DNA from: a virus
IMG/VR virus record: IMGVR_UViG_3300017786_002104
Coordinates: 1-45,396 of that record
DNA length: 45,396 nt
Reading direction: 5' to 3' (one strand)
A program made the translations under genes and the position numbers. How positions within the stretch are numbered: the first letter of the stretch is position 1; every line of letters begins with the position of its first letter. Shown in pieces: positions 14,687-41,053 of this stretch. Below the pieces are notes generated by a model, which had not been told where the DNA came from, made no database searches, and worked only from the letters and a program-made list of their open reading frames with translations.

Positions 14687-15467
14687 AATATTTCCTTGCT
14701 ATTAATTCATGTCCTTCTGCGTTTGGATGCGAATCTAAATCACTTATTTCTTTTCCTTTAATTTTATCATTAAGCAAAAAACCATGTAAGCTTTTTAGAA
14801 AGGGGTATCCTACATAATGCTTTTTGTCTAAATCGTATAGTGCGTTTATTCTACCATAAGCTATATGCCATTCTACTTCAGTCCAAGGTATTTCACTATC
14901 AAAAGAGTTTTCAACTTGCCGATACTTTTCTAAAGATATATTCCCACAAAGCGGAGCCATTATAAATTTGATATTAAGTGCCTTACACAATTCTTGTATT
15001 TGCCACATTTGTTTAAACCAATATATTACCTGTTCTGTGTACAAGTTAGTGTGATCTTTAAAAGTTCTATTAACAAGAAACTCTCCATACAAATGTTTAA
15101 ACAACGGGATAACTGCTTTGGTCTGTTTTGTGAATTTTTCATAATTCTCTGGGCGGTATAAAGAAGTCATTGGATTAAAACGATATATGTCTAATAAACC
15201 AAATCTTTGTATTTCAGTCCATCCGACAACAACTAGTTCTATGTTAGTAGGGTCTTTTAAAATATGTTGAATTAATTGCGATGTTATGTAATCGTTGCCA
15301 ACACCACAAAGTCCAATATTTTTAACGTCAAGATCAAGATACTCACCTAATATCTCAGGCCATTTGGGAAAAGAACAATCAAAGTCTTTACCCATAACAG
15401 GCGACCAAAAATTCTTGTCTGTGAAACTACACCCAGCAGCTAAAATATACTTAGAAGACTTTGACAT
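14658..15467 (-). CDS. SGNH/GDSL-like hydrolase
   Basis: 269 aa. The N-terminal block AAGCSFTDKNFWS corresponds to the SGNH nucleophile region (G-x-S). The GVGNDYI segment provides the Gly/Asn blocks, and the C-terminal DSHPNAEGHELIA gives the catalytic D-x-x-H. Such enzymes are often O-acetyl esterases acting on glycans. The ATG at 15467 (MSKSSKYILA) has AAAGGA upstream and overlaps the carbamoyltransferase end by 17 bases. Its place among glycan genes supports a carbohydrate substrate. Confidence 0.75.
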   Translation of the reverse strand: MSKSSKYILAAGCSFTDKNFWSPVMGKDFDCSFPKWPEILGEYLDLDVKNIGLCGVGNDYITSQLIQHILKDPTNIELVVVGWTEIQRFGLLDIYRFNPMTSLYRPENYEKFTKQTKAVIPLFKHLYGEFLVNRTFKDHTNLYTEQVIYWFKQMWQIQELCKALNIKFIMAPLCGNISLEKYRQVENSFDSEIPWTEVEWHIAYGRINALYDLDKKHYVGYPFLKSLHGFLLNDKIKGKEISDLDSHPNAEGHELIARKYYEQYSKAYS

Positions 15468-16806
15468 TATATTTCCTTTGAAACTCAAGAGCATGTTCCC
15501 ACGTATCAACCATTGGCTGACCTTTTATATTTAGGCTAGTGTTCAAAAGCATTGGGCAACCAGTGTCGTCATACCATTCTTCAAGAATTGTTCTCAAAAC
15601 AGATTTGCAGTCTTTTCTGACAATCTGTACCCTTGCAGTCCCATCTACATGAGTTACTGATTTATGATCATGCTTTGCATTGGCGACAAACTGCATGTAT
15701 TCATTCATTTGTCCTTCGAAATACTCATTAGCATATTCTTCCAAGATAGAAGGTGCAAAGGGTCGAAATTTTTGTCTTTGTTTAACTTCGTTAATAGTGT
15801 CTTTAATATCGAGTCTAGGGTCAGCAATAAGGCTACGATTGCCAAGGGAACGAGCGCCAAACTCAGCACGACCATTTGCAATACCACAATAACCATCACT
15901 CCCAAGAGTTTTGATAACATCTTTAATTTTAATTTCATGTTTAATCTCCGTTCCTAAGTATGGGTCAATCCAATTCAATTTCTTTCCATATGCCAACGCC
16001 GCCGCACCTAGAGACGAACCTGCATCACCAGGGCTTGGCATAATCCATATATTCTTTCCAAGTTCTGCTACCTTAGTATTGGCAACACAATTCATAGCCA
16101 CCCCACCCATCATAATCAGGTTTTCGTGTAAGCAATATTTCTTCACTAGATTGAGTATCGTATCTTCGACAATAGCCTGTGCTGATGCGGCAATATCTTC
16201 ATTGAACCAATGCGATGGTAAACGTGGTATTCCCCTGTGACAATTCGTATAGTCTAGGTATTGCTTGAGTTCATCATAGAACCTTGGCTCACCATAAGCC
16301 GCCATACCCATTGTAATGTATTCGTCTTCTTGTGGTTTCAAACCTATACATCTAGTAACAGCGGAATAGAACAATCCGATAGAGTAAGGATACTTAAAAC
16401 TCTTTGTCTTGATCATCTTTGGGACGCCATTCTTTTCCCACGCTTTCCATACAGAAACCGTATCCCACTCACCAATGGCATCAATTACTAATATGTTGCA
16501 CGATTCAAATTTAGACGTGTAAAAACCTGCCGCCGCATGTGATTTGTGATGATTGAAAGAAACATCATAATCAGTACGACATGGCTTCCACCCTTGACCA
16601 GAGTATATCTGTCGAGTTTTTTTAAGCCAAGGCTTTTCATAGAATGCTACTGTTGCATCAATATCTTTGGGATATTGTGATGGGTGCGTCCATCGATCAT
16701 TCTTCTTGCGACTATAGCGTTCGGCATGTGTAGCTGAAATGATATTACCACCATCAACTACACTTACACTTGCATCATGAAAGCCTTCGCTTATGCCAAT
16801 GATCAT
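15451..16806 (-). CDS. NodU/CmcH-family carbamoyltransferase
   Basis: 451 aa. The N-terminal ASKHA-type domain starts MIIGISEGFHDASVSVVDGG and holds FNHHKSHAAAGFYTS with the His residues needed for carbamoyl phosphate use. MMGGVAMNCVANTK and GDAGSSLGAAALAYG follow, and the YrdC-like C-terminal part has GARSLGNRSLIADPR and LLNTSLNIKGQPM. These enzymes put a carbamoyl group on a sugar hydroxyl (as NodU does on Nod factor). It is shorter than typical members (about 550-600 aa). It sits in the glycan island. Confidence 0.9.
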   Translation of the reverse strand: MIIGISEGFHDASVSVVDGGNIISATHAERYSRKKNDRWTHPSQYPKDIDATVAFYEKPWLKKTRQIYSGQGWKPCRTDYDVSFNHHKSHAAAGFYTSKFESCNILVIDAIGEWDTVSVWKAWEKNGVPKMIKTKSFKYPYSIGLFYSAVTRCIGLKPQEDEYITMGMAAYGEPRFYDELKQYLDYTNCHRGIPRLPSHWFNEDIAASAQAIVEDTILNLVKKYCLHENLIMMGGVAMNCVANTKVAELGKNIWIMPSPGDAGSSLGAAALAYGKKLNWIDPYLGTEIKHEIKIKDVIKTLGSDGYCGIANGRAEFGARSLGNRSLIADPRLDIKDTINEVKQRQKFRPFAPSILEEYANEYFEGQMNEYMQFVANAKHDHKSVTHVDGTARVQIVRKDCKSVLRTILEEWYDDTGCPMLLNTSLNIKGQPMVDTWEHALEFQRKYNVKVF

Positions 16807-21354: not shown

Positions 21355-21932
21355 TACTTAGTCCTTTCTAGCACGGTCAAACCGTTGTTATTTGTTCTGA
21401 ATTCTTTAAACTTCCATTGAGGATTTTCCATAACAAAATGAACAATGGGGGCAATCAATCCTTCATTAGCAATCGGTCTTTTGTCTTTAAAGTCACGCCA
21501 ATTCTGTTTCTCATCTCTACAACCATATGTATGAGTGTCATGAAACGCAAGAAACTTCTTAGCTTTATTACCATGTATATTAAGCTCACGCTTTAGTTGT
21601 GAACCAGAATGCCATGTATCAATGAATAATAGATCAGTTGGTTCTATTTCTATTTTCAAAACGTTTTCTTTCATGTACTTCACATCTTTACCAACAGTCT
21701 TGGCTTTTCTAAAAAGGTCTTGAACTTCTTCATCTAATTCAATGTCGTATGATCTTAGGGCGGCATTTGTATTAAGGAATGCCCTACTGCTTTGACCATC
21801 ACGAACTCCCATTTCAGTAATGTGTTCACATTCCATACCCAATGTGTATAGCAATTCAATATGCTCATTGATATCGGAAAATGTGTTCTTGGCGTTGTTA
21901 TATTCGCCTTCTATAAATTGTACGAAACTCAT
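21354..21932 (-). CDS. SAM-dependent methyltransferase-like protein
   Basis: 192 aa, class I fold: ITEMGVRDGQSSRAFL (motif I-like, with G-x-x-x-G-x-S), RSYDIELDEEV as the second strand, LLFIDTWHSGSQLKRELNI and FLAFHDTHTYGC, similar to cephalosporin-hydroxylase/Methyltransf_24-type proteins. Substrate unknown. The ATG at 21932 overlaps the epimerase stop as ATGA and has AAGGTGG upstream, so it replaces a longer frame. Confidence 0.75.
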   Translation of the reverse strand: MSFVQFIEGEYNNAKNTFSDINEHIELLYTLGMECEHITEMGVRDGQSSRAFLNTNAALRSYDIELDEEVQDLFRKAKTVGKDVKYMKENVLKIEIEPTDLLFIDTWHSGSQLKRELNIHGNKAKKFLAFHDTHTYGCRDEKQNWRDFKDKRPIANEGLIAPIVHFVMENPQWKFKEFRTNNNGLTVLERTK

Positions 21933-22951
21933 ATGTCTAACCACCTTGTATTTTTTAATGTCCATTCAGTAACCTCTGCTAGGCGTTCACGCACTGGCTT
22001 TGGTTCCCAACCCAATTGATCCTTCATTCTATCGCCACACATAGCATAACGTAAATCATGCCCTGGTCTTGACGAATGGAAGTCAACCATCTCGTATTTC
22101 AATTCTTTGCCTTGTGCTTCAGCAATGATCTGTGCAACCTCAAGGTTGTTTAGTTCTTCAGCACCCACAATGTTAAATTTCTGTGACTTGATCCCAGTTC
22201 CGTCATTATTACGCTGAAACTCTGATTGTATCAAGTTTAGTGTAGCATCTGCTACATCATTAGCATGAATATAGTGACGTGAACCTGCCTCAGTCTTTTC
22301 AGAGTTACTATGTACTGTCACTGACTTACCATCACGAATGTTTCTAATACACATAGGAATAAACTTCTCAGGGTGTTGACGTTCACCAAATACGTTCATT
22401 GTATGTGTAATATAGATTGGCATGTCGTAAGAGTTCTCGAAAGCAACCGCAAGTTCTTCACCACCCGCTTTTGATGCACTGTATGGGTTAGTACAGTTGT
22501 AACGATCATACTCTTTGTATTTAACACCTTTTGGCGCAGGACCGAACACCTCATCAGTCGAGAAGTAAATCAATCTTTCAAGACTGTCTAACTGTCTAGC
22601 ATAGTTAAGCAGATTACATGTACCAACCACGTTATCCATTACAAATTCCATAGGATGATCAATAGAGCGATCTACATGCGAACCTGCCGCCATGTGAATG
22701 ACATAATCGATACGTCCAATATCCGCTGTGATCATGGGGTTTAGTTCAGCTTTTAGATCATGGTACACTACCCTAAATCTTTTTCGCTGTGCATCAGTAA
22801 GGTCTGACAAAACGTCGTGTAAACGATTTAAGTTTCCACTATAATCAAGACGATCTAGTGAGACAATTTCCCAATCGGTTCTTCTTAAAATTTCTGAAAT
22901 TGTGTGGTGTGCAATAAAACCTGCACCGCCAGTTACTAGAACTCTTTTCAT
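21929..22951 (-). CDS. NAD-dependent dehydratase, RmlB-like
   Basis: 340-aa extended short-chain dehydrogenase. The N-terminal TGGAGFIAHHTI binds NAD, VIHMAAGSHVDRSI and YFSTDEVFGP follow, then the active-site YSASKAGGEE (Tyr-x-x-x-Lys). This matches dTDP-glucose 4,6-dehydratase more than simple epimerases, and the enzyme would make a 4-keto-6-deoxy sugar nucleotide. It is complete in length. It is first in the run 21929-19592 and preceded by a hairpin and a late promoter. Confidence 0.9.
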   Translation of the reverse strand: MKRVLVTGGAGFIAHHTISEILRRTDWEIVSLDRLDYSGNLNRLHDVLSDLTDAQRKRFRVVYHDLKAELNPMITADIGRIDYVIHMAAGSHVDRSIDHPMEFVMDNVVGTCNLLNYARQLDSLERLIYFSTDEVFGPAPKGVKYKEYDRYNCTNPYSASKAGGEELAVAFENSYDMPIYITHTMNVFGERQHPEKFIPMCIRNIRDGKSVTVHSNSEKTEAGSRHYIHANDVADATLNLIQSEFQRNNDGTGIKSQKFNIVGAEELNNLEVAQIIAEAQGKELKYEMVDFHSSRPGHDLRYAMCGDRMKDQLGWEPKPVRERLAEVTEWTLKNTRWLDI

Positions 22952-23017: not shown

Positions 23018-23488
23018 CTATTTCAACCAACCGATTTTCTTACCTTCTGAAATTCTTCTTTCAGCTTCTGCTTGCGAACCAGGGTATCTCCAAGCCCACA
23101 AAACAATAAGCGCCATAGTAATGGCTAGGTATAGTACCGCCTTTGGGTTGCCTGTAGTGAACCACAGAAACGCCAGAGAAGATGACATTACTGCCACCAT
23201 AAGGTACTTTGCTTTTTGTGGATATACACGATACTTAGACCAATTCTTAATGAAAGGTCCGAAAGTCTTGTGGTTTAAAATCCAGTTGTGGAATCTATCA
23301 CTAGACTTCGCAAAGCAAAATGTAGCTCCAAGTATTGGTGTACTCCAAGGTAATCCTGGAACGATAACACCCAAATAGGCAACGCCTACCAAGATGATGC
23401 CCAGAACAAACCAAAATGGTTTCATAATCTTTTTCATAGTATTCTCTTTCTTTCGAGGTGCAAAGAAGTTGCGTTCAAGTTGATTCAT
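23018..23488 (-). CDS. DUF454 / YbaN-family inner membrane protein
   Basis: Up to 156 aa, matching YbaN-type proteins: a first transmembrane helix with [20 protein letters not shown], the conserved [19 protein letters not shown] block, GPFIKNW, and two hydrophobic stretches near residues 95-130. Function is unknown in bacteria. The ATG at 23488 overlaps the hemA stop (ATGA) with AGAGG upstream; an ATG at 23437 would remove 17 polar residues and is also possible. Its coupling to hemA suggests a link to tetrapyrrole or iron handling, which is inference. Confidence 0.83.
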
Positions 23489-24699
23489 CTCAAAACCTCT
23501 TTCAGTGCTTCGACTAATTCCACCATCATAATATCGGTATGGAATGGAGTAGGTGCAATACGTAAACGTTCCGTACCTACTTCCACTGTTGGGGAATTAA
23601 TCGGTTGAATGTATATACCGAACTCATTTAACAGCCTATCACTTGCTACTTTACATTTGAAGGCGTCGTTAACCATAACAGGAATAATATGCGTACAGGC
23701 GTTAGGATGTATATCCATACCTGCATCAATCAACATCTGCTTCAACTTAGCAGTCCTTTCTTGGTGCTTCTCCCTAACAACGTTATGATCTTTTAAGTAA
23801 CTAACAGAAGCAAGCACACCTGCACATAACACAGGAGACATACTTGTTGTGAAAATAAAACCAGCAGCGACTGACCTAATAGCATCTACGATTATTTGCT
23901 TACCTGCAATATAACCACCTTGAACTCCAAATGCTTTACCCAATGTACCGTTAATAATATCAATACGATCTGATAGACCCAACTTTTCACAGTAGCCAGC
24001 ACCAGTGTCGCCATAAAGACCAACAGCATGTACTTCATCAATGAAAGTAAAGGCTTCGTATTTCTCTGCTAAGTCACATATATCTCCTATAGGTGACACA
24101 TCACCGTCCATACTATACACAGACTCAAACAAGATTACAGGCATTTCGTTAGCTTCTACAGCTTCTTTAAGATGCTTCTCTAGGTTGTCCATGTCATTAT
24201 GTTTGAAGATACGTTTGTTTGCCCTACTATGTTTCACACCCATGATAAGAGAATTGTGGTTCTTTTCATCAGAAATAAAACATACGTTTGGCAATATACG
24301 AGAGATAGCAACGAGCGACCACTCATTTGCTACATATGCACTCGTAAATAATAGTGAAGATTCTTTTCTATGCAACCCTGCTAATACACGCTCAAGTGTT
24401 ACGTGATAATGTGAAGTACCACCTATGTTTCGTGTACCACCAGAACCTGCCCCAGTTTGATCTAAAGCAGTATGCATTGCATCTATGACGTATTGGTTTT
24501 GACCCATACCTAAGTAATCATTAGAACACCAATTCACTATATTCTTTGGTGCGTACTTGCCGTACCAAATGGAACGTGGAAAATTCCCACGCTCCCTAAG
24601 TATGTCGTTAAATATTCTATAACGACCATCGCCTTTAAAGTCTTCGACAGTTTGGCTGAAATAGTCCAAATAGTGTCTGTTACGCTTCACAGGCGGCAC
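23485..24699 (-). CDS. hemA: 5-aminolevulinate synthase
   Basis: 404-aa PLP enzyme that makes 5-aminolevulinate from glycine and succinyl-CoA, the entry to heme in alphaproteobacteria. Diagnostic blocks are [54 protein letters not shown] (PLP-binding Asp221, His224), [17 protein letters not shown] with Lys255, and [11 protein letters not shown]. Related AOS enzymes (KBL, BioF) lack this N-terminal pattern. The start is GTG with no clear ribosome site and lies 20 bases inside nrdA, so translation is coupled. Full length, no frameshift. Confidence 0.94.
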
Positions 24700-36737: not shown

Positions 36738-37421
36738 TTATTTATAATTTCTAAGAAAGGACGGTATGAAATTATAGTTTTTATTTGCAGAACTGCCCCA
36801 TATTGTCGATTCTCGTAACCATCCTATCGCAGGGGTAGGACTTGCTATGTGCAATGGCATTGCAGTTCTGCGTTGACCACGTATAAAGTAATCATTATCA
36901 ACTGCGCTCCTTAAACCCTGTGTATGTAGCTCATCTACTAGAAACTTAGCTGTTCTCTTAGTCATAGCATATGCGTGTGCGCCCTCATGACCATCAATCC
37001 TAATTAGGTCATTAGGAACACCAGCAGCAACGTGATCATATCTTGTTGGATCATTTAGCTTATAACCAAGAACCACAATGGTATTCTCTGGTATCTCTAT
37101 TGTTATTGGTTGTAGCATTATAGCGTCATGTTCTAACACAACACCAACATTATCAGTACCGTTTGCGATCTTCTGCCATATGGCAATGTGACCAGCAGTA
37201 CAACACATGGCTTTTTGTCCTTGGTTTGGTTCTGGGATGTAAGTATAAGGTTCTGTCGGTAGTCTAGGTATATTCAGATTAGCGAATGCCATCTTACCTG
37301 TCTGGTTAGAAAACCCCATGGAGTATTCCCAAGGTAAACCAACCTTATCACAAGAGTCAGCACAAGTCTTGGCGTAATCATGCGATACTTTCTTATCAAT
37401 CTTTAGTATGTATGCTTTCAT
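36738..37421 (-). CDS. GT25-like glycosyltransferase
   Basis: 227 aa. The N-terminal MKAYILKIDKKVSHDYAKTC, a central HIAIWQKIANGTDNVGVVLE with an acidic HDAIM end, and GAHAYAMTKRTAKFLVDEL resemble family 25 (LPS) glycosyltransferases such as LgtB. Its acceptor is unknown. It overlaps the sulfotransferase gene as ATGA with an AGAGGA ribosome site, so sugar addition and sulfation may be linked. Confidence 0.75.
   Translation of the reverse strand: MKAYILKIDKKVSHDYAKTCADSCDKVGLPWEYSMGFSNQTGKMAFANLNIPRLPTEPYTYIPEPNQGQKAMCCTAGHIAIWQKIANGTDNVGVVLEHDAIMLQPITIEIPENTIVVLGYKLNDPTRYDHVAAGVPNDLIRIDGHEGAHAYAMTKRTAKFLVDELHTQGLRSAVDNDYFIRGQRRTAMPLHIASPTPAIGWLRESTIWGSSANKNYNFIPSFLRNYK
36739..36746 (-). promoter_or_regulatory. 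T4-type late promoter TATAAATA
   Basis: Exact late octamer on the minus strand, overlapping the stop of the GT25-like gene and 18 bases before the 420-aa protein start. The predicted leader is about 10 bases. Confidence 0.65.
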
Positions 37422-38089
37422 ACGTATGTTTCCTCTGCCAAATCATTGTACAATTCTATGTCTGCACCAAAACGTTTTGATAATGTTTCCATGGCTTCTT
37501 CATCAAAAACAATCTCATTTTCTCTATTTTTTCTAAAATCGTTTTTGTGGTTTGGCAACGCATGTGTTACTTGTAGATTTAGTTCTCGCATCAGTTGGCT
37601 TAGTTCGTTCCCTATGTTTGGATACAACCAATATTCGCCTTGTATCTCCCCACTACATTTTAATATGTTAGACTGTAATATACCAGAGTTTGGTTCACCG
37701 CTAAAGAAACCTTTTGGTGTCCATGCTTTGTATTGTGCCAAAGATGGTTCAGAACCAGCTTGCTTCCATCTTTTGTAAAAGTAATAGAAGCTTTTCTGTC
37801 TATCCACAGGATTGCGAATAACTGCTATTGATCTATATTCGAGCGCCTGTTGTAATGTTATGATATTGTTATCCACCAAATCCTGTAAGGTAAAATGATA
37901 GTATGCAAAATTTATTCTGTATTTGTCTGTAATTTGTTTACTTAAAGTACCACCAATACCAGAGTCTTCTACTGGTGTGTAGATTGCATCAGTATCAGGT
38001 ATATTCTTAATAAAGAATTCTGACAGGCTACTACTAGCAGTCTTTGGCGTTCTTAGGAATATTAGTTTATATTTGTGGCTTACGTACAT
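37418..38089 (-). CDS. Sulfotransferase-family protein
   Basis: 223 aa. The 5'-phosphosulfate-binding loop FLRTPKTASSSLSEFF is at residues about 11-26, and the 3'-phosphate site AVIRNPVDRQKSFYYFY near residue 100, both intact. They match carbohydrate sulfotransferases, which use PAPS as donor. It lies between the GT25-like and GT32-like genes, so a glycan acceptor is likely. It is short compared with cellular enzymes but has both motifs. Confidence 0.85.
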   Translation of the reverse strand: MYVSHKYKLIFLRTPKTASSSLSEFFIKNIPDTDAIYTPVEDSGIGGTLSKQITDKYRINFAYYHFTLQDLVDNNIITLQQALEYRSIAVIRNPVDRQKSFYYFYKRWKQAGSEPSLAQYKAWTPKGFFSGEPNSGILQSNILKCSGEIQGEYWLYPNIGNELSQLMRELNLQVTHALPNHKNDFRKNRENEIVFDEEAMETLSKRFGADIELYNDLAEETYV

Positions 38090-38739
38090 TATACACCCTT
38101 ATCATATGTTACACTATTCGCATGTCCTGTCGAACCCCACTTGTGGTCAGCATATACCTTATCAGGTCCGTCATATCTCTTAGCACCACCAATGTAGAAT
38201 AGTGGGATAAAATAGTGGCTAGGCCATACTGTAAGTTGGTGCATCCAATGAGGAACGTGACGTGATAAGAACAAATTACCCGTTGATCTAAAAGGTTCTG
38301 GGCTTAGTTCTTGCGGAGTTAATATATGTAATGTGTCTATAACATGTTTAACAAATCCATTTTCTGGATTACATGCCATAATGGGTTGAATGAAGTTATG
38401 CCTACCTCTTTCGTTTTCATAACAAGAATACGCATGGTTTTCTGGTGAAGTAAACAACTCTTCTGTGTTCTCCAAGCAAGTCATATCAGCCTCAGGCCAA
38501 AACCCACCTTGCTCATATAATAGTTCGTATCTAATCAAATCAGACACGCCTGGCCACTTACCTGTGTTGTAATAGTGTTCGATAAGATGTTGGTTCTTCC
38601 ATTTACGAGACTTTAGCATATTGTCATCGAATATAGAATACTCCCAATCAGGATGTTTGTCTCTCCAAGTGTGCATCCAAGTGAGTGGTGGTGGTTTCGG
38701 ACCTATCCATATTTGGCTTAGTTTCTTTTCGATGTTCAC
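38089..38739 (-). CDS. GT32-like glycosyltransferase, GTG start
   Basis: 216 aa. The first block IEKKLSQIWIGPKPPP, then HPDWEYSIFDDN, and ISDL-type VSDLIRYELLYEQGGFWPEADMTCLEN match the family 32 (OCH1/capsule sugar) fold, where GG-Y-D-D is usual; here the metal site reads EADM. The start is GTG at 38739, coupled to the methyltransferase stop as GTGA, with GGTGGG upstream; a TTG 15 bases earlier is an alternative. It probably adds a hexose to a glycan. Confidence 0.82.
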   Translation of the reverse strand: MNIEKKLSQIWIGPKPPPLTWMHTWRDKHPDWEYSIFDDNMLKSRKWKNQHLIEHYYNTGKWPGVSDLIRYELLYEQGGFWPEADMTCLENTEELFTSPENHAYSCYENERGRHNFIQPIMACNPENGFVKHVIDTLHILTPQELSPEPFRSTGNLFLSRHVPHWMHQLTVWPSHYFIPLFYIGGAKRYDGPDKVYADHKWGSTGHANSVTYDKGV

Positions 38740-39299
38740 TTCTGCACCCACCAAATAAAATCATCTTCGACGTTCCATGAGTTCTCCCCATAGAATTCTG
38801 TTACTGCTTGCGTAACTGTTGGGAAGTGAATGTCGTGTCCAAACACAATACCACCTTTGCGTACCTTTTGATCCCAAGCCTTGATATCTCTTAGACAACC
38901 TTCATACCCATGATCAGCGTCAATGAATATAAAGTCTAATGTACCATCAGGAACCATCTTAGCCGCTTCTGTGGTGTAGTCTTTAATAATCATAGTTCTG
39001 TCTGGGTGTTCAACTGAGAAAGATAGCATACTGTCATAGTAGTCTTCGTGCTTCCATGGATGACCGTTTTCTCCGGGCGTCCACTTCTCAGGTCCGTTAT
39101 TCTCTGGTTGTGCTTCGTATAAGTCCACACCGATTAGATGTAGGTTAGGGCAGTTGTTAATTAAGAAGCGATAATTAACCCCATCGTGGATACCAAGCTC
39201 TGCGCCTCTAGTCCACCCATTAGTATTCACAAACCTTGCAAGTGTATTCCACCTGTAAACATCACCACCGTCATTACCACGATCTCTAATTCTTCCCAT
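38736..39299 (-). CDS. Class I SAM-dependent methyltransferase
   Basis: 187 aa. Motif I-like RGAELGIHDGVNYRFL, IGVDLYEAQ as the acidic end of strand 2, LDFIFIDADHGYEGCLRDI and GGIVFGHDIHF match Methyltransf_24 type. It is the first gene of the second glycan cluster and could O-methylate a sugar. A strong GGAG precedes the ATG, and the terminator at 39320-39344 separates it from the energy operon. Confidence 0.83.
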   Translation of the reverse strand: MGRIRDRGNDGGDVYRWNTLARFVNTNGWTRGAELGIHDGVNYRFLINNCPNLHLIGVDLYEAQPENNGPEKWTPGENGHPWKHEDYYDSMLSFSVEHPDRTMIIKDYTTEAAKMVPDGTLDFIFIDADHGYEGCLRDIKAWDQKVRKGGIVFGHDIHFPTVTQAVTEFYGENSWNVEDDFIWWVQK

Positions 39300-39319
39300 A
39301 ATATATCTCCACTTAAACG

Positions 39320-39344
39320 AAAAAAGGTAGACTTTCGCCTACCT
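39320..39344 (-). terminator. Rho-independent terminator, minus strand
   Basis: Minus-strand stem of 8 pairs (one G-U) closing a GAAA tetraloop (arms 39325-39332 and 39337-39344), followed by six U. It ends the operon 39360-40932 and lies upstream of the methyltransferase gene at 38736-39299. Confidence 0.8.
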
Positions 39345-39359
39345 CTTTATTTATGCAGA

Positions 39360-39422
39360 TTACTTGCCGCCTTTTTTCTTCTCACCTTTAGGTTTGAGTG
39401 CGGTGTGGTCTGGATCGATCAT
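39360..39422 (-). CDS. 20-aa basic peptide
   Basis: Short frame MIDPDHTALKPKGEKKKGGK that starts overlapping the pseudoazurin stop (ATGA) and has AGGAG 5 bases before its ATG, one of the best ribosome sites in the region. It ends 16 bases before the terminator. The strong initiation signal makes a real peptide likely despite its size. Function unknown; the basic tail could bind RNA or membranes. Confidence 0.55.
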   Translation of the reverse strand: MIDPDHTALKPKGEKKKGGK

Positions 39423-39841
39423 AGTTCTCCTAACAAAGCCTTGAGCTTTTTCTTTGACTTGCCTTTTACTTTGGCTTTTGAAATATCATTATCTCCATCA
39501 CCTACAACGACAATAGCAATCATTCCCATGCTCTTGTGTGGTGAACACTGATACAAATATACACCTGGAGTGTCGAATTGCATCTCAACTACTTTATTAA
39601 GTTTTGATTTCTTTGGTGCTTTCCACCCATCAGGTCCTGCAATAAATTCTACATTATGACCTTTTGATGTTGGAACCCATGTGATAATCTCACCCACTTC
39701 GATACGTGTAATATCTTCTGAGTAGACCATCTTAGCGCCATCATCACGCTTGTTTAACATTTCGATTGTAACATCTGCGTTGGCTGAACTTACTGCAAAT
39801 ACAGCCGCAAACATTACTAAGTAAAAATAAAGTGTTTTCAT
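39419..39841 (-). CDS. Pseudoazurin (type-1 copper protein)
   Basis: 140 aa. Signal peptide residues 1-22 (cut after SSANA), then the cupredoxin domain: MVYSEDITRIEVGEIITWVP, KGHNVEFIAGPDGW with His62, and YQCSPHKSMGM with Cys99, His102 and Met107. The Cys-x2-His-x4-Met spacing equals bacterial pseudoazurin, and MVY...V-GE-I-WVPT-K-HNVE is family-specific. It would be periplasmic and carry one electron, in host cells typically to nitrite or nitrous-oxide reductase, cytochrome oxidases or peroxidases. A Lys-rich C-terminal tail of about 25 residues extends beyond the family. Confidence 0.9.
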   Translation of the reverse strand: MKTLYFYLVMFAAVFAVSSANADVTIEMLNKRDDGAKMVYSEDITRIEVGEIITWVPTSKGHNVEFIAGPDGWKAPKKSKLNKVVEMQFDTPGVYLYQCSPHKSMGMIAIVVVGDGDNDISKAKVKGKSKKKLKALLGEL

Positions 39842-39849
39842 ATCATATC

Positions 39850-39984
39850 CTAACTTGTTTTGTACATGTTGTGTTTAAATTCAGAGATTTCATTGGCTTT
39901 ATCATTCATGCCCATATCTCTTAACTGCTTAATACTCATACAGTAACTTCTATATTCCATTAGTTTCATAAATCGTTTAAACAT
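39850..39984 (-). CDS. Small protein, 44 aa
   Basis: Helical small protein (MFKRFMKLMEYRSYCMSIKQ, then LRDMGMNDKANEISEFKHNM) with GAGGAA 6-8 bases before the ATG. It fills the gap between the pseudoazurin gene and the membrane protein at 40000-40221. Function unknown. Confidence 0.55.
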   Translation of the reverse strand: MFKRFMKLMEYRSYCMSIKQLRDMGMNDKANEISEFKHNMYKTS

Positions 39985-39999
39985 TACGTTTCCTCTTTC

Positions 40000-40221
40000 T
40001 TACATCTTTTTACAGTCAAAGACTGATTTTTCTAATTGTACTGGTACACCGCCTTTAGCGATACATACCTCTTTCCAATTTGGTTCGTTAAATTTTTGGA
40101 TAACAGCATAGAAACCAAAAGCTATACATATTACCATAAGTGAAGTCATAATTACAAACATATAGAAACCTAACTTCTGCACTACTTGTGCTGATATTTC
40201 CATATGTTGATCACCAACCAT
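40000..40221 (-). CDS. Single-span membrane protein with Cys pair
   Basis: 73 aa, one transmembrane helix (LGFYMFVIMTSLMVICIAFGF) and a short tail with two Cys (KEVCIAKGG ... VFDCKKM). The tail may be periplasmic and form a disulfide. The ATG at 40221 overlaps the atpE stop as TAATG; an ATG at 40203 (MEISAQ) with GGTGA upstream is the alternative. Function unknown; coupling to atpE suggests joint membrane action. Confidence 0.68.
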   Translation of the reverse strand: MVGDQHMEISAQVVQKLGFYMFVIMTSLMVICIAFGFYAVIQKFNEPNWKEVCIAKGGVPVQLEKSVFDCKKM

Positions 40222-40451
40222 TATACTGCAAACATTAATAGTAATGCCACCAAGAATGCAAAGATGCCTAATGCTTCTGCAAATGCGATACCTACGAACA
40301 TTGTTCCTTGATCACCTTCACCTTTTTTAGGCATGTACTTTAATACACTGCCAACTATAATTCCGACAGCGATAGCCGCCCCACCCATTCCAATTGTTGC
40401 TAACCCTGCACCCAATAAAGCGCCCATCGTTGCTATGTCACCTGTAATCAT
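40221..40451 (-). CDS. atpE: F0F1 ATP synthase subunit c
   Basis: 76-aa c-subunit, two helices. Helix 1 carries the glycine-rich pattern [17 protein letters not shown]. Helix 2 is [20 protein letters not shown] with the ion-binding Glu59, nearly as in alphaproteobacteria. The loop between the helices is changed: cellular proteins have the conserved R-N/Q-P turn that contacts the F1 stalk, but here residues 36-51 read [16 protein letters not shown], about three residues shorter than alphaproteobacterial proteins and lacking that Arg. It would insert into the host membrane and could enter the host rotor ring. It is coupled on both sides (start in TAATG context, overlap with the next gene). Confidence 0.9.
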
Positions 40452-40645
40452 TATTTGCTCTCCAACATTAATCTTCTTGCTTCTTCTACATATCCTTGAC
40501 GGTATAATTCACTGGCGGCTCTTGCTCTACCTGCTGACTCACCGAATGCCCATAGGAACATTCCTATTGCTACGATTGTTTTACTTAATACTTTTAAGGT
40601 TGTTTTTAAAGGATGGCTTACATATTCTGCATTAGCTAATTCCAT
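40451..40645 (-). CDS. Small membrane-associated protein, 64 aa
   Basis: A hydrophobic segment ([15 protein letters not shown]) is followed by an amphipathic helix ([20 protein letters not shown]). No family recognised with certainty. The ATG overlaps the DUF1127 stop as TAATG with GAGG upstream, and its stop is adjacent to the atpE start, so it is in the same operon. Confidence 0.65.
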
Positions 40646-40932
40646 TACACTGAACCTCTCAAATTTGGGTTCGAACGAACATTATGTGGGTATGTGTCAC
40701 GAAGATTGTTTTCGTGAAATGTGTCATTAGCAATAGAACGAATATCGCCACGGCTAATGCCGATGTCGTTTAGTTCTCTATCTGTTAATGCGTGGAGTGT
40801 TTTAAATGTTTGTCTGCGATCTTTAGCTTTAGCCATCGATTGCGAAATTCCTTCGATGAATGTTACAAAACGGTATGCCCAGACTGACAACATGCTTGAA
40901 TTGTTATTGATGTTAAAGAATGTGTGTGCCAT
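40645..40932 (-). CDS. DUF1127-domain protein
   Basis: 95 aa. The C-terminal half has TLHALTDRELNDIGISRGDI, the DUF1127 signature of small basic host proteins common in alphaproteobacteria and reported in phosphate, C/N regulation and RNA maturation. The N-terminal half is helical and hydrophobic. The ATG at 40932 has AAAGGA upstream and is the first gene of the operon. The domain is probably of host origin. Confidence 0.82.
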   Translation of the reverse strand: MAHTFFNINNNSSMLSVWAYRFVTFIEGISQSMAKAKDRRQTFKTLHALTDRELNDIGISRGDIRSIANDTFHENNLRDTYPHNVRSNPNLRGSV

Positions 40933-41053
40933 GATTAATCCTTTTCTAATAAGTGTTTCTTGTTTCTTCAATAATATTTAGCACCTATTTTTGAAAATAA
41001 CACCCCAAGAGATACGCTAAGATTGCATAGTCGTATTGCGTTCTAGGAAACTG

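What the first reader, a model, noticed from the sequence alone, without database searches (positions are those of the whole stretch)
39419..39841. Virus-encoded pseudoazurin
All four copper ligands (His62, Cys99, His102, Met107) and a signal peptide are present. Cyanophages are known to carry plastocyanin, but a pseudoazurin in a phage of a likely heterotroph is unusual. It may keep electrons flowing to oxidases or nitrogen-oxide reductases while host proteins decline. The Lys-rich tail is an extra.
Basis: partly seen in the sequence, partly recalled or inferred. Interest (0 to 1): 0.78.

Follow-up and report, generated by a model that had tools for sequence, protein, structure and literature searches.

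The report
Phage-encoded pseudoazurin in respiratory gene cassette
A T4-like marine phage carries an intact, strongly conserved gene for a secreted blue-copper electron carrier, and hundreds of related phage contigs carry it too, often in an operon with small respiratory-chain and ATP-synthase proteins, which suggests these viruses keep or retune their host's respiration during infection.

Summary
Window 39419-39841, minus strand, encodes a 140-aa secreted cupredoxin with all four type-1 copper ligands (H62, C99, H102, M107). Sequence and AlphaFold/Foldseek place it among pseudoazurins, although its score is below NCBIfam's strict pseudoazurin cut-off.

It is not an isolated oddity. At least 335 IMG/VR loci encode relatives. 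The ligands are invariant in 46 distinct sequences, purifying selection is strong (median dN/dS 0.09), and T4-type Gp23 capsid genes lie on the same contigs. The viral genes form essentially one old clade nested among marine Rhodobacterales pseudoazurins.

Three results point to aerobic respiration. In eight related bacterial loci the gene lies beside a complete cytochrome c oxidase operon plus ctaG. In other phages it sits 18-50 bp downstream of a cytochrome oxidase subunit IV-like gene and often beside DoxX. In the window it follows a viral ATP-synthase c subunit. A nirK nitrite reductase above cut-off was found in 0 of 20 pseudoazurin-bearing bacteria.

Best explanation: a periplasmic electron shuttle from bc1 to the host aa3 oxidase, in a viral respiration cassette. 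The most surprising side-finding is that all about 70 viral c subunits keep the proton-carrying Glu but lack the RNP loop that binds F1.

The parts
39419..39841 (-). Viral pseudoazurin-type cupredoxin, 140 aa
   Evidence: dN/dS 0.09
39776..39841 (-). Signal peptide, residues 1-22 (predicted cleavage ANA|DVT)
   Evidence: read from sequence; low-confidence helix 3-15 in model
39656..39658 (-). Copper ligand His62
   Evidence: invariant in 46 viral sequences and in 79 cellular rows
39545..39547 (-). Copper ligand Cys99
   Evidence: as above
39536..39538 (-). Copper ligand His102
   Evidence: as above
39521..39523 (-). Copper ligand Met107
   Evidence: as above
40221..40451 (-). Viral ATP synthase subunit c (AtpE); essential Glu in AFAEALGIF kept, host loop ALRNPSAAxGQT replaced by [13 protein letters not shown]
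   Evidence: PF00137 4e-11; PRK07558 7e-18; alignment of viral and host copies
40000..40221 (-). 73-aa single-TM protein of unknown function, next to viral atpE in 68 of 70 loci
   Evidence: no Pfam/NCBIfam hit
40451..40645 (-). 64-aa small protein upstream of atpE (62 of 70 loci)
40645..40971 (-). DUF1127 small protein heading the atpE module (66 of 70 loci)
   Evidence: PF06568 9.6e-12
39360..39422 (-). 20-aa micro-ORF overlapping the cupredoxin stop codon (MIDPDHTALKPKGEKKKGGK); similar M[IL]DPDH[ST].. peptides follow the gene in about 15 of 46 relatives
   Evidence: read from sequences
39319..39344 (-). Hairpin plus T-run, likely intrinsic terminator of the transcript
   Evidence: AGGTAGGCGAAAGTCTACCTTTTTT read directly; the simple scan lists the hairpin on + only
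23485..24699 (-). 5-aminolevulinate synthase (haem precursor enzyme) of the same virus, a second respiration-related gene
   Evidence: TIGR01821 547.7 bits against cut-off 338.6

Best explanation
The gene encodes a secreted type-1 copper electron carrier that the virus makes during infection of a marine alphaproteobacterium, probably a Rhodobacterales host. After Sec export and copper loading in the periplasm it shuttles single electrons from the bc1 complex to the CuA site of the host's cytochrome c oxidase. This keeps respiration and proton-motive force running while host proteins decline. It belongs to a viral respiration cassette that includes, in one or another lineage, an AtpE c subunit, a cytochrome oxidase subunit IV-like membrane protein and DoxX. 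Shown here: identity, ligands, fold, selection, viral location, cassette linkage, and linkage of bacterial homologues to cox operons. Inferred: secretion, copper loading, redox partners and benefit to the virus.
For: Fold and ligands. Strong purifying selection. T4 Gp23 on the same contigs as the cupredoxin. Eight bacterial loci carry the homologue divergent from coxB-coxA-coxC-coxD-ctaB and followed by ctaG/cox11, and CoxB there has an intact CuA motif CAEYCGTGHYAM. The viral COX4_pro_2-like protein matches Pfam in 9 of 10 members, best 2.1e-5. In an independent search from that gene, 53 of 72 viral loci have the cupredoxin within 3 kb, all on the same strand, mostly 18-50 bp downstream. DoxX 8e-08 is adjacent in many loci. 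One contig (L138) has AtpE, COX4-like, cupredoxin and DoxX in a row. COX1 is present in 16 of 20 pseudoazurin-bearing bacterial genomes.
Against: No biochemistry or expression data. The cox-operon neighbours belong to a related bacterial clade (MarineAlpha5-type), not to the Rhodobacterales loci nearest the viral gene, where the gene stands alone. Two of the lysines around the docking face of classical pseudoazurins (K46, K77) are not conserved, so the partner is uncertain. The score is under the strict pseudoazurin cut-off. The window itself lacks the COX4-like and DoxX genes. COX1 Pfam does not separate oxidase types.
Confidence: 0.68

Rival explanations
1. It feeds electrons to denitrification enzymes (Cu nitrite reductase, N2O reductase), as many classical pseudoazurins do.
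For: Classical pseudoazurin partners (family knowledge); a SAR11 nirK-cbb3 region contains a pseudoazurin (PMC12816887).
Against: NirK above cut-off in 0 of 20 pseudoazurin-bearing bacterial genomes; no nitrogen gene seen among the recurring viral neighbours; classical docking lysines K46/K77 not conserved. NosZ was not tested, and some genomes are incomplete.
Confidence: 0.1
2. It is a copper carrier or buffer that supplies copper for oxidase (CuA/CuB) assembly, or protects the virocell from copper, rather than an electron shuttle.
For: Adjacent to ctaG/cox11, a copper-insertion factor, in eight bacterial loci; sits beside a COX4-like gene in viruses.
Against: Intact type-1 ligand set and pseudoazurin fold are built for fast electron transfer, not copper release; no methionine-rich or PCuAC/Sco-type copper-transfer motif seen; ctaG is a normal part of cox operons.
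Confidence: 0.1
3. It tunes rather than sustains respiration: the cupredoxin provides an electron sink while the altered viral c subunit uncouples or blocks ATP synthase, so that the cassette redirects host energy metabolism.
For: All about 70 viral AtpE copies keep the proton-carrying Glu but replace the conserved RNP loop, while all sampled host copies keep it; atpE is directly upstream of the cupredoxin in the window and relatives.
Against: No functional data; a shorter loop might still bind F1; cupredoxin and atpE are often found apart.
Confidence: 0.1
4. It is a bacterial gene in a mis-called or mis-assembled contig, not viral.
For: The closest relatives include bacterial genes; L157 (a bacterial contig) nests in the viral clade.
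Against: The window is otherwise T4-like (UvsX, DnaB, RNR, thymidylate synthase, PhoH); Gp23 lies on the same contig in several records; 335 loci in diverse viral contexts.
Confidence: 0.02

Closest known systems
Bacterial pseudoazurin (TIGR02375; PDB 1bqk, 3tu6, 1paz)
   Same: Fold, four copper ligands with the same spacing, conserved Pro101, C-terminal helix, signal peptide
   Different: Encoded by a virus; about 41% identity to solved ones; score below the equivalog cut-off; docking lysines K46 and K77 not conserved
Cyanophage plastocyanin (petE, PHROG 515)
   Same: Phage-encoded secreted blue-copper electron carrier; weak PHROG 515 match, 7.9e-06
   Different: Different cupredoxin type; cyanophage PetE serves photosynthesis, this one sits in phages of likely heterotrophs beside respiratory genes; weak fold match in BFVD
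Marine alphaproteobacterial pseudoazurin next to the cytochrome c oxidase operon
   Same: 43-72% identical, same ligands, the likely cellular source family
   Different: Chromosomal; the viral clade has its own neighbours
Phage 5-aminolevulinate synthase, published vAlaS (PMC11480375)
   Same: Respiration-supporting auxiliary gene in aquatic phages; also present in this window
   Different: That paper does not mention azurins, cupredoxins, plastocyanin or ATP synthase

Membership tests
Pfam PF00127 Copper-bind (plastocyanin/azurin) | Profile score above gathering cut-off | tested here: met
   54.2 against 21.2 bits
Pseudoazurin | NCBIfam TIGR02375 equivalog cut-off | tested here: not met
   95.1 against 109.85 bits; the nearest bacterial homologue L153 also misses narrowly, 106.4. 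So I call it pseudoazurin-type, not a certified equivalog
Pseudoazurin | Four type-1 Cu ligands H-C-H-M with pseudoazurin spacing | tested here: met
   H62, C99, H102, M107; invariant
Pseudoazurin | Cupredoxin barrel plus C-terminal helix; nearest fold pseudoazurin rather than plastocyanin or amicyanin | tested here: met
   27 best PDB folds are pseudoazurins, TM 0.85 to target; plastocyanin E is about 5 orders weaker
Pseudoazurin | Periplasmic export | tested here: inconclusive
   Signal peptide by reading only
Pseudoazurin | Blue copper absorbance and redox activity | not testable with these tools
   needs protein
Pseudoazurin | Lysine ring (K10, K38, K46, K57, K77 region) | tested here: not met
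   K10, K38 and K57 equivalents kept; K46 to A, K77 to Q
Viral auxiliary metabolic gene | Host-derived metabolic gene in a genuine virus genome, under selection | tested here: met
ATP synthase subunit c (neighbour gene) | Essential carboxylate in helix 2 and RNP/RQP polar loop | tested here: not met
   carboxylate kept, polar loop replaced in all viral copies
aa3 cytochrome oxidase subunit IV, PF07835 (neighbour gene in other phages) | Score above Pfam cut-off | tested here: inconclusive
   9 of 10 members match, best 2.1e-5; one scored 19.7 against 22 bits

The most novel reading that the evidence does not exclude
T4-like phages of marine heterotrophs carry a dedicated oxidative-phosphorylation takeover cassette: a pseudoazurin that feeds the terminal oxidase, oxidase- and quinone-associated membrane proteins (COX IV-like, DoxX), and a decoy ATP-synthase c subunit that keeps the proton-carrying Glu but has lost the F1-binding RNP loop. 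The virus would thereby set both electron flow and coupling in the infected cell.
Probability: 0.25. Interest if true: 0.92.

Novelty: new variant of a known kind. Interest (0 to 1): 0.77.

Why it matters
Phage-encoded electron carriers are known from cyanophages, where they serve photosynthesis. Here a different copper carrier is widespread and old in phages of marine alphaproteobacteria, with recurring respiratory partners. If it works as proposed, viruses directly manage aerobic respiration and copper demand of abundant ocean heterotrophs, and the altered viral c subunit offers a testable new way for a virus to act on ATP synthase. I found no paper reporting a phage pseudoazurin in the library searched (CC-licensed PMC only).

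Tried and rejected
No relative in the INPHARED phage records by tblastn for the cupredoxin or AtpE, so no cultured phage is at hand. ALA synthase matches there are only 27-35% identical BioF/Kbl-type or unannotated records. Denitrification partner tested with NirK: not supported. Contamination by a bacterial gene rejected. PHROGs gave only a weak plastocyanin match. Literature searches for viral pseudoazurin, cupredoxin or ATP synthase c subunit gave nothing relevant; the pelagiphage and Baltic AMG papers do not mention azurin, plastocyanin or ATP synthase. A bacterial row (L157, MED-G08) inside the viral clade was not resolved: virus-to-cell transfer or unsampled donor. The small neighbours p40000, p40451, c65 and c121 stayed without any family match.

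Full report
Observation. The ORF at 39419-39841 is on the minus strand and encodes 140 aa. Pfam Copper-bind is clear. NCBIfam pseudoazurin is the best named family at 2.2e-27, but 95.1 bits is below its 109.85 cut-off. All top PDB sequence hits are pseudoazurins. An AlphaFold model from 34 aligned sequences has mean pLDDT 90, and its 27 best PDB folds are all pseudoazurins, with plastocyanins about five orders of magnitude weaker in E-value. The Lys-rich tail is shared with bacterial homologues and is the C-terminal helix, not an extra.

Distribution and reality. The window is a 45.4-kb virus record with T4-like genes: UvsX, DnaB helicase, PhoH, ribonucleotide reductase, thymidylate synthase. 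A scan of IMG/VR found 335 loci encoding relatives; 80 were kept, 66-99% identical. No record in the INPHARED phage collection matches. The copper ligands are invariant in 46 distinct viral sequences. Median pairwise dN/dS over the mature core is 0.09. T4 major capsid Gp23 lies on the same contig as the cupredoxin in G687, G688 (where Gp23 is in several pieces), G689, G693, G705 and contig C57 of G704.

Origin. In a 119-row tree, 37 of 39 viral rows plus one bacterial row (MED-G08, Paracoccaceae) form a clade (100/82), within a wider clade (99/96) that otherwise holds mainly marine Rhodobacterales such as Ascidiaceihabitans and Planktomarina (few columns, so inner order is weak). This indicates one main, old acquisition from a Rhodobacterales-like source. 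L033 falls with the bacterial side, and L163, a T4-like contig binned with Neomarinimicrobiota, is separate. The viral AtpE beside the gene matches Rhodobacteraceae AtpE at 60-69% (283 of 298 genomes), whereas the pseudoazurin is rare in that family (4 of 298 at E <= 1e-25). A Rhodobacterales host is likely but not proven.

Function from context. (a) Bacteria: in eight loci the homologue is divergent from a complete cytochrome c oxidase operon (COX2, COX1, two COX3-type genes, COX4, UbiA/CtaB) and followed by CtaG/Cox11 (families scanned on one of the eight, L221); CoxB carries an intact CuA motif, so this oxidase takes electrons from a soluble carrier. (b) Viruses: a small membrane protein related to aa3 oxidase subunit IV (9 of 10 members match PF07835, best 2.1e-5) recurs next to the cupredoxin. 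Searching IMG/VR independently with that protein gave 72 loci; 53 have the cupredoxin within 3 kb, all on the same strand, mostly 18-50 bp downstream. DoxX is adjacent in many. (c) Window: the order is DUF1127, a 64-aa protein, AtpE, a 73-aa TM protein, cupredoxin, terminator. The first four form a conserved module in 62-68 of 70 viral atpE loci. Contig L138 joins both sets: AtpE, two TM proteins, COX4-like, cupredoxin, DoxX. (d) COX1 is present in 16 of 20 pseudoazurin-bearing bacterial genomes, NirK above cut-off in none.

Mechanism. The most likely role is a secreted shuttle from bc1 to the terminal oxidase. A plausible advantage (inference) is that a cupredoxin needs only export and copper, not the cytochrome c maturation machinery, so a virus can raise carrier supply with one gene. 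Redox partners, copper loading and fitness benefit are untested. Two of the docking lysines of classical pseudoazurins are not conserved, so partner specificity may differ.

Side-finding. All about 70 viral AtpE copies keep helix 2 with the essential Glu almost identical to the host's, yet replace the ALRNPSAAxGQT loop by a shorter K-x-MPKK...T stretch (one outlier locus, L151, 53% identical, has a different loop that also lacks RNP; one locus, L150, is cut short before helix 2); every sampled host copy keeps RNP. The RNP loop contacts the F1 central stalk (family knowledge), so this subunit may form rings that do not couple normally. This is a hypothesis, but it is consistent across the viral loci.

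Novelty. Cyanophage plastocyanin is the nearest known kind; pseudoazurin in phages of heterotrophs, and the cassette, were not found in the papers searched, with the limit that only CC-licensed PMC texts were available. ALA synthase in aquatic phages is already published (PMC11480375).

Noticed in passing
window 40221-40451 (-); L082-L151: Viral ATP synthase c subunit keeps the proton-carrying Glu but in the viral copies lacks the RNP polar loop that all sampled host copies keep; possible decoy or uncoupling subunit.
   Followed up: partly
L280-L351; L138:3673-3895: Viral small membrane protein related to aa3 cytochrome oxidase subunit IV, usually directly upstream of the cupredoxin (53 of 72 loci within 3 kb, all same strand).
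   Followed up: partly
L138:4313-4717 and about 24 of 43 cupredoxin loci: Viral DoxX-family membrane protein often adjacent to the cupredoxin.
   Followed up: partly
window 39360-39422 (-): 20-aa micro-ORF overlapping the cupredoxin stop codon; M[IL]DPDH[ST] peptides follow the gene in about 15 of 46 relatives.
   Followed up: no
window 39850-39984 (-): 44-aa ORF between the 73-aa TM protein and the cupredoxin, resembling the DUF1127 motif (LRDMGM).
   Followed up: no
window 40645-40971 (-): Phage DUF1127 protein heading the atpE module; recurs in 66 of 70 viral atpE loci.
   Followed up: partly
window 23485-24699 (-): Phage 5-aminolevulinate synthase, well above its curated cut-off; kind already published for aquatic phages.
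   Followed up: partly
L163 (335-kb contig binned as Neomarinimicrobiota): T4-like Gp23-bearing contig with a separate, divergent pseudoazurin: a possible independent acquisition in a large phage.
   Followed up: partly
L157:635-1057: Pseudoazurin of Rhodobacteraceae MED-G08 on a bacterial-looking contig nests inside the viral clade: possible virus-to-cell transfer.
   Followed up: no
window 36738-39299, 15451-16806, 21929-22951 (-): Glycosyltransferase, sulfotransferase-like, methyltransferase, NodU-like carbamoyltransferase and dTDP-glucose dehydratase-like genes, suggesting surface-sugar modification.
   Followed up: no
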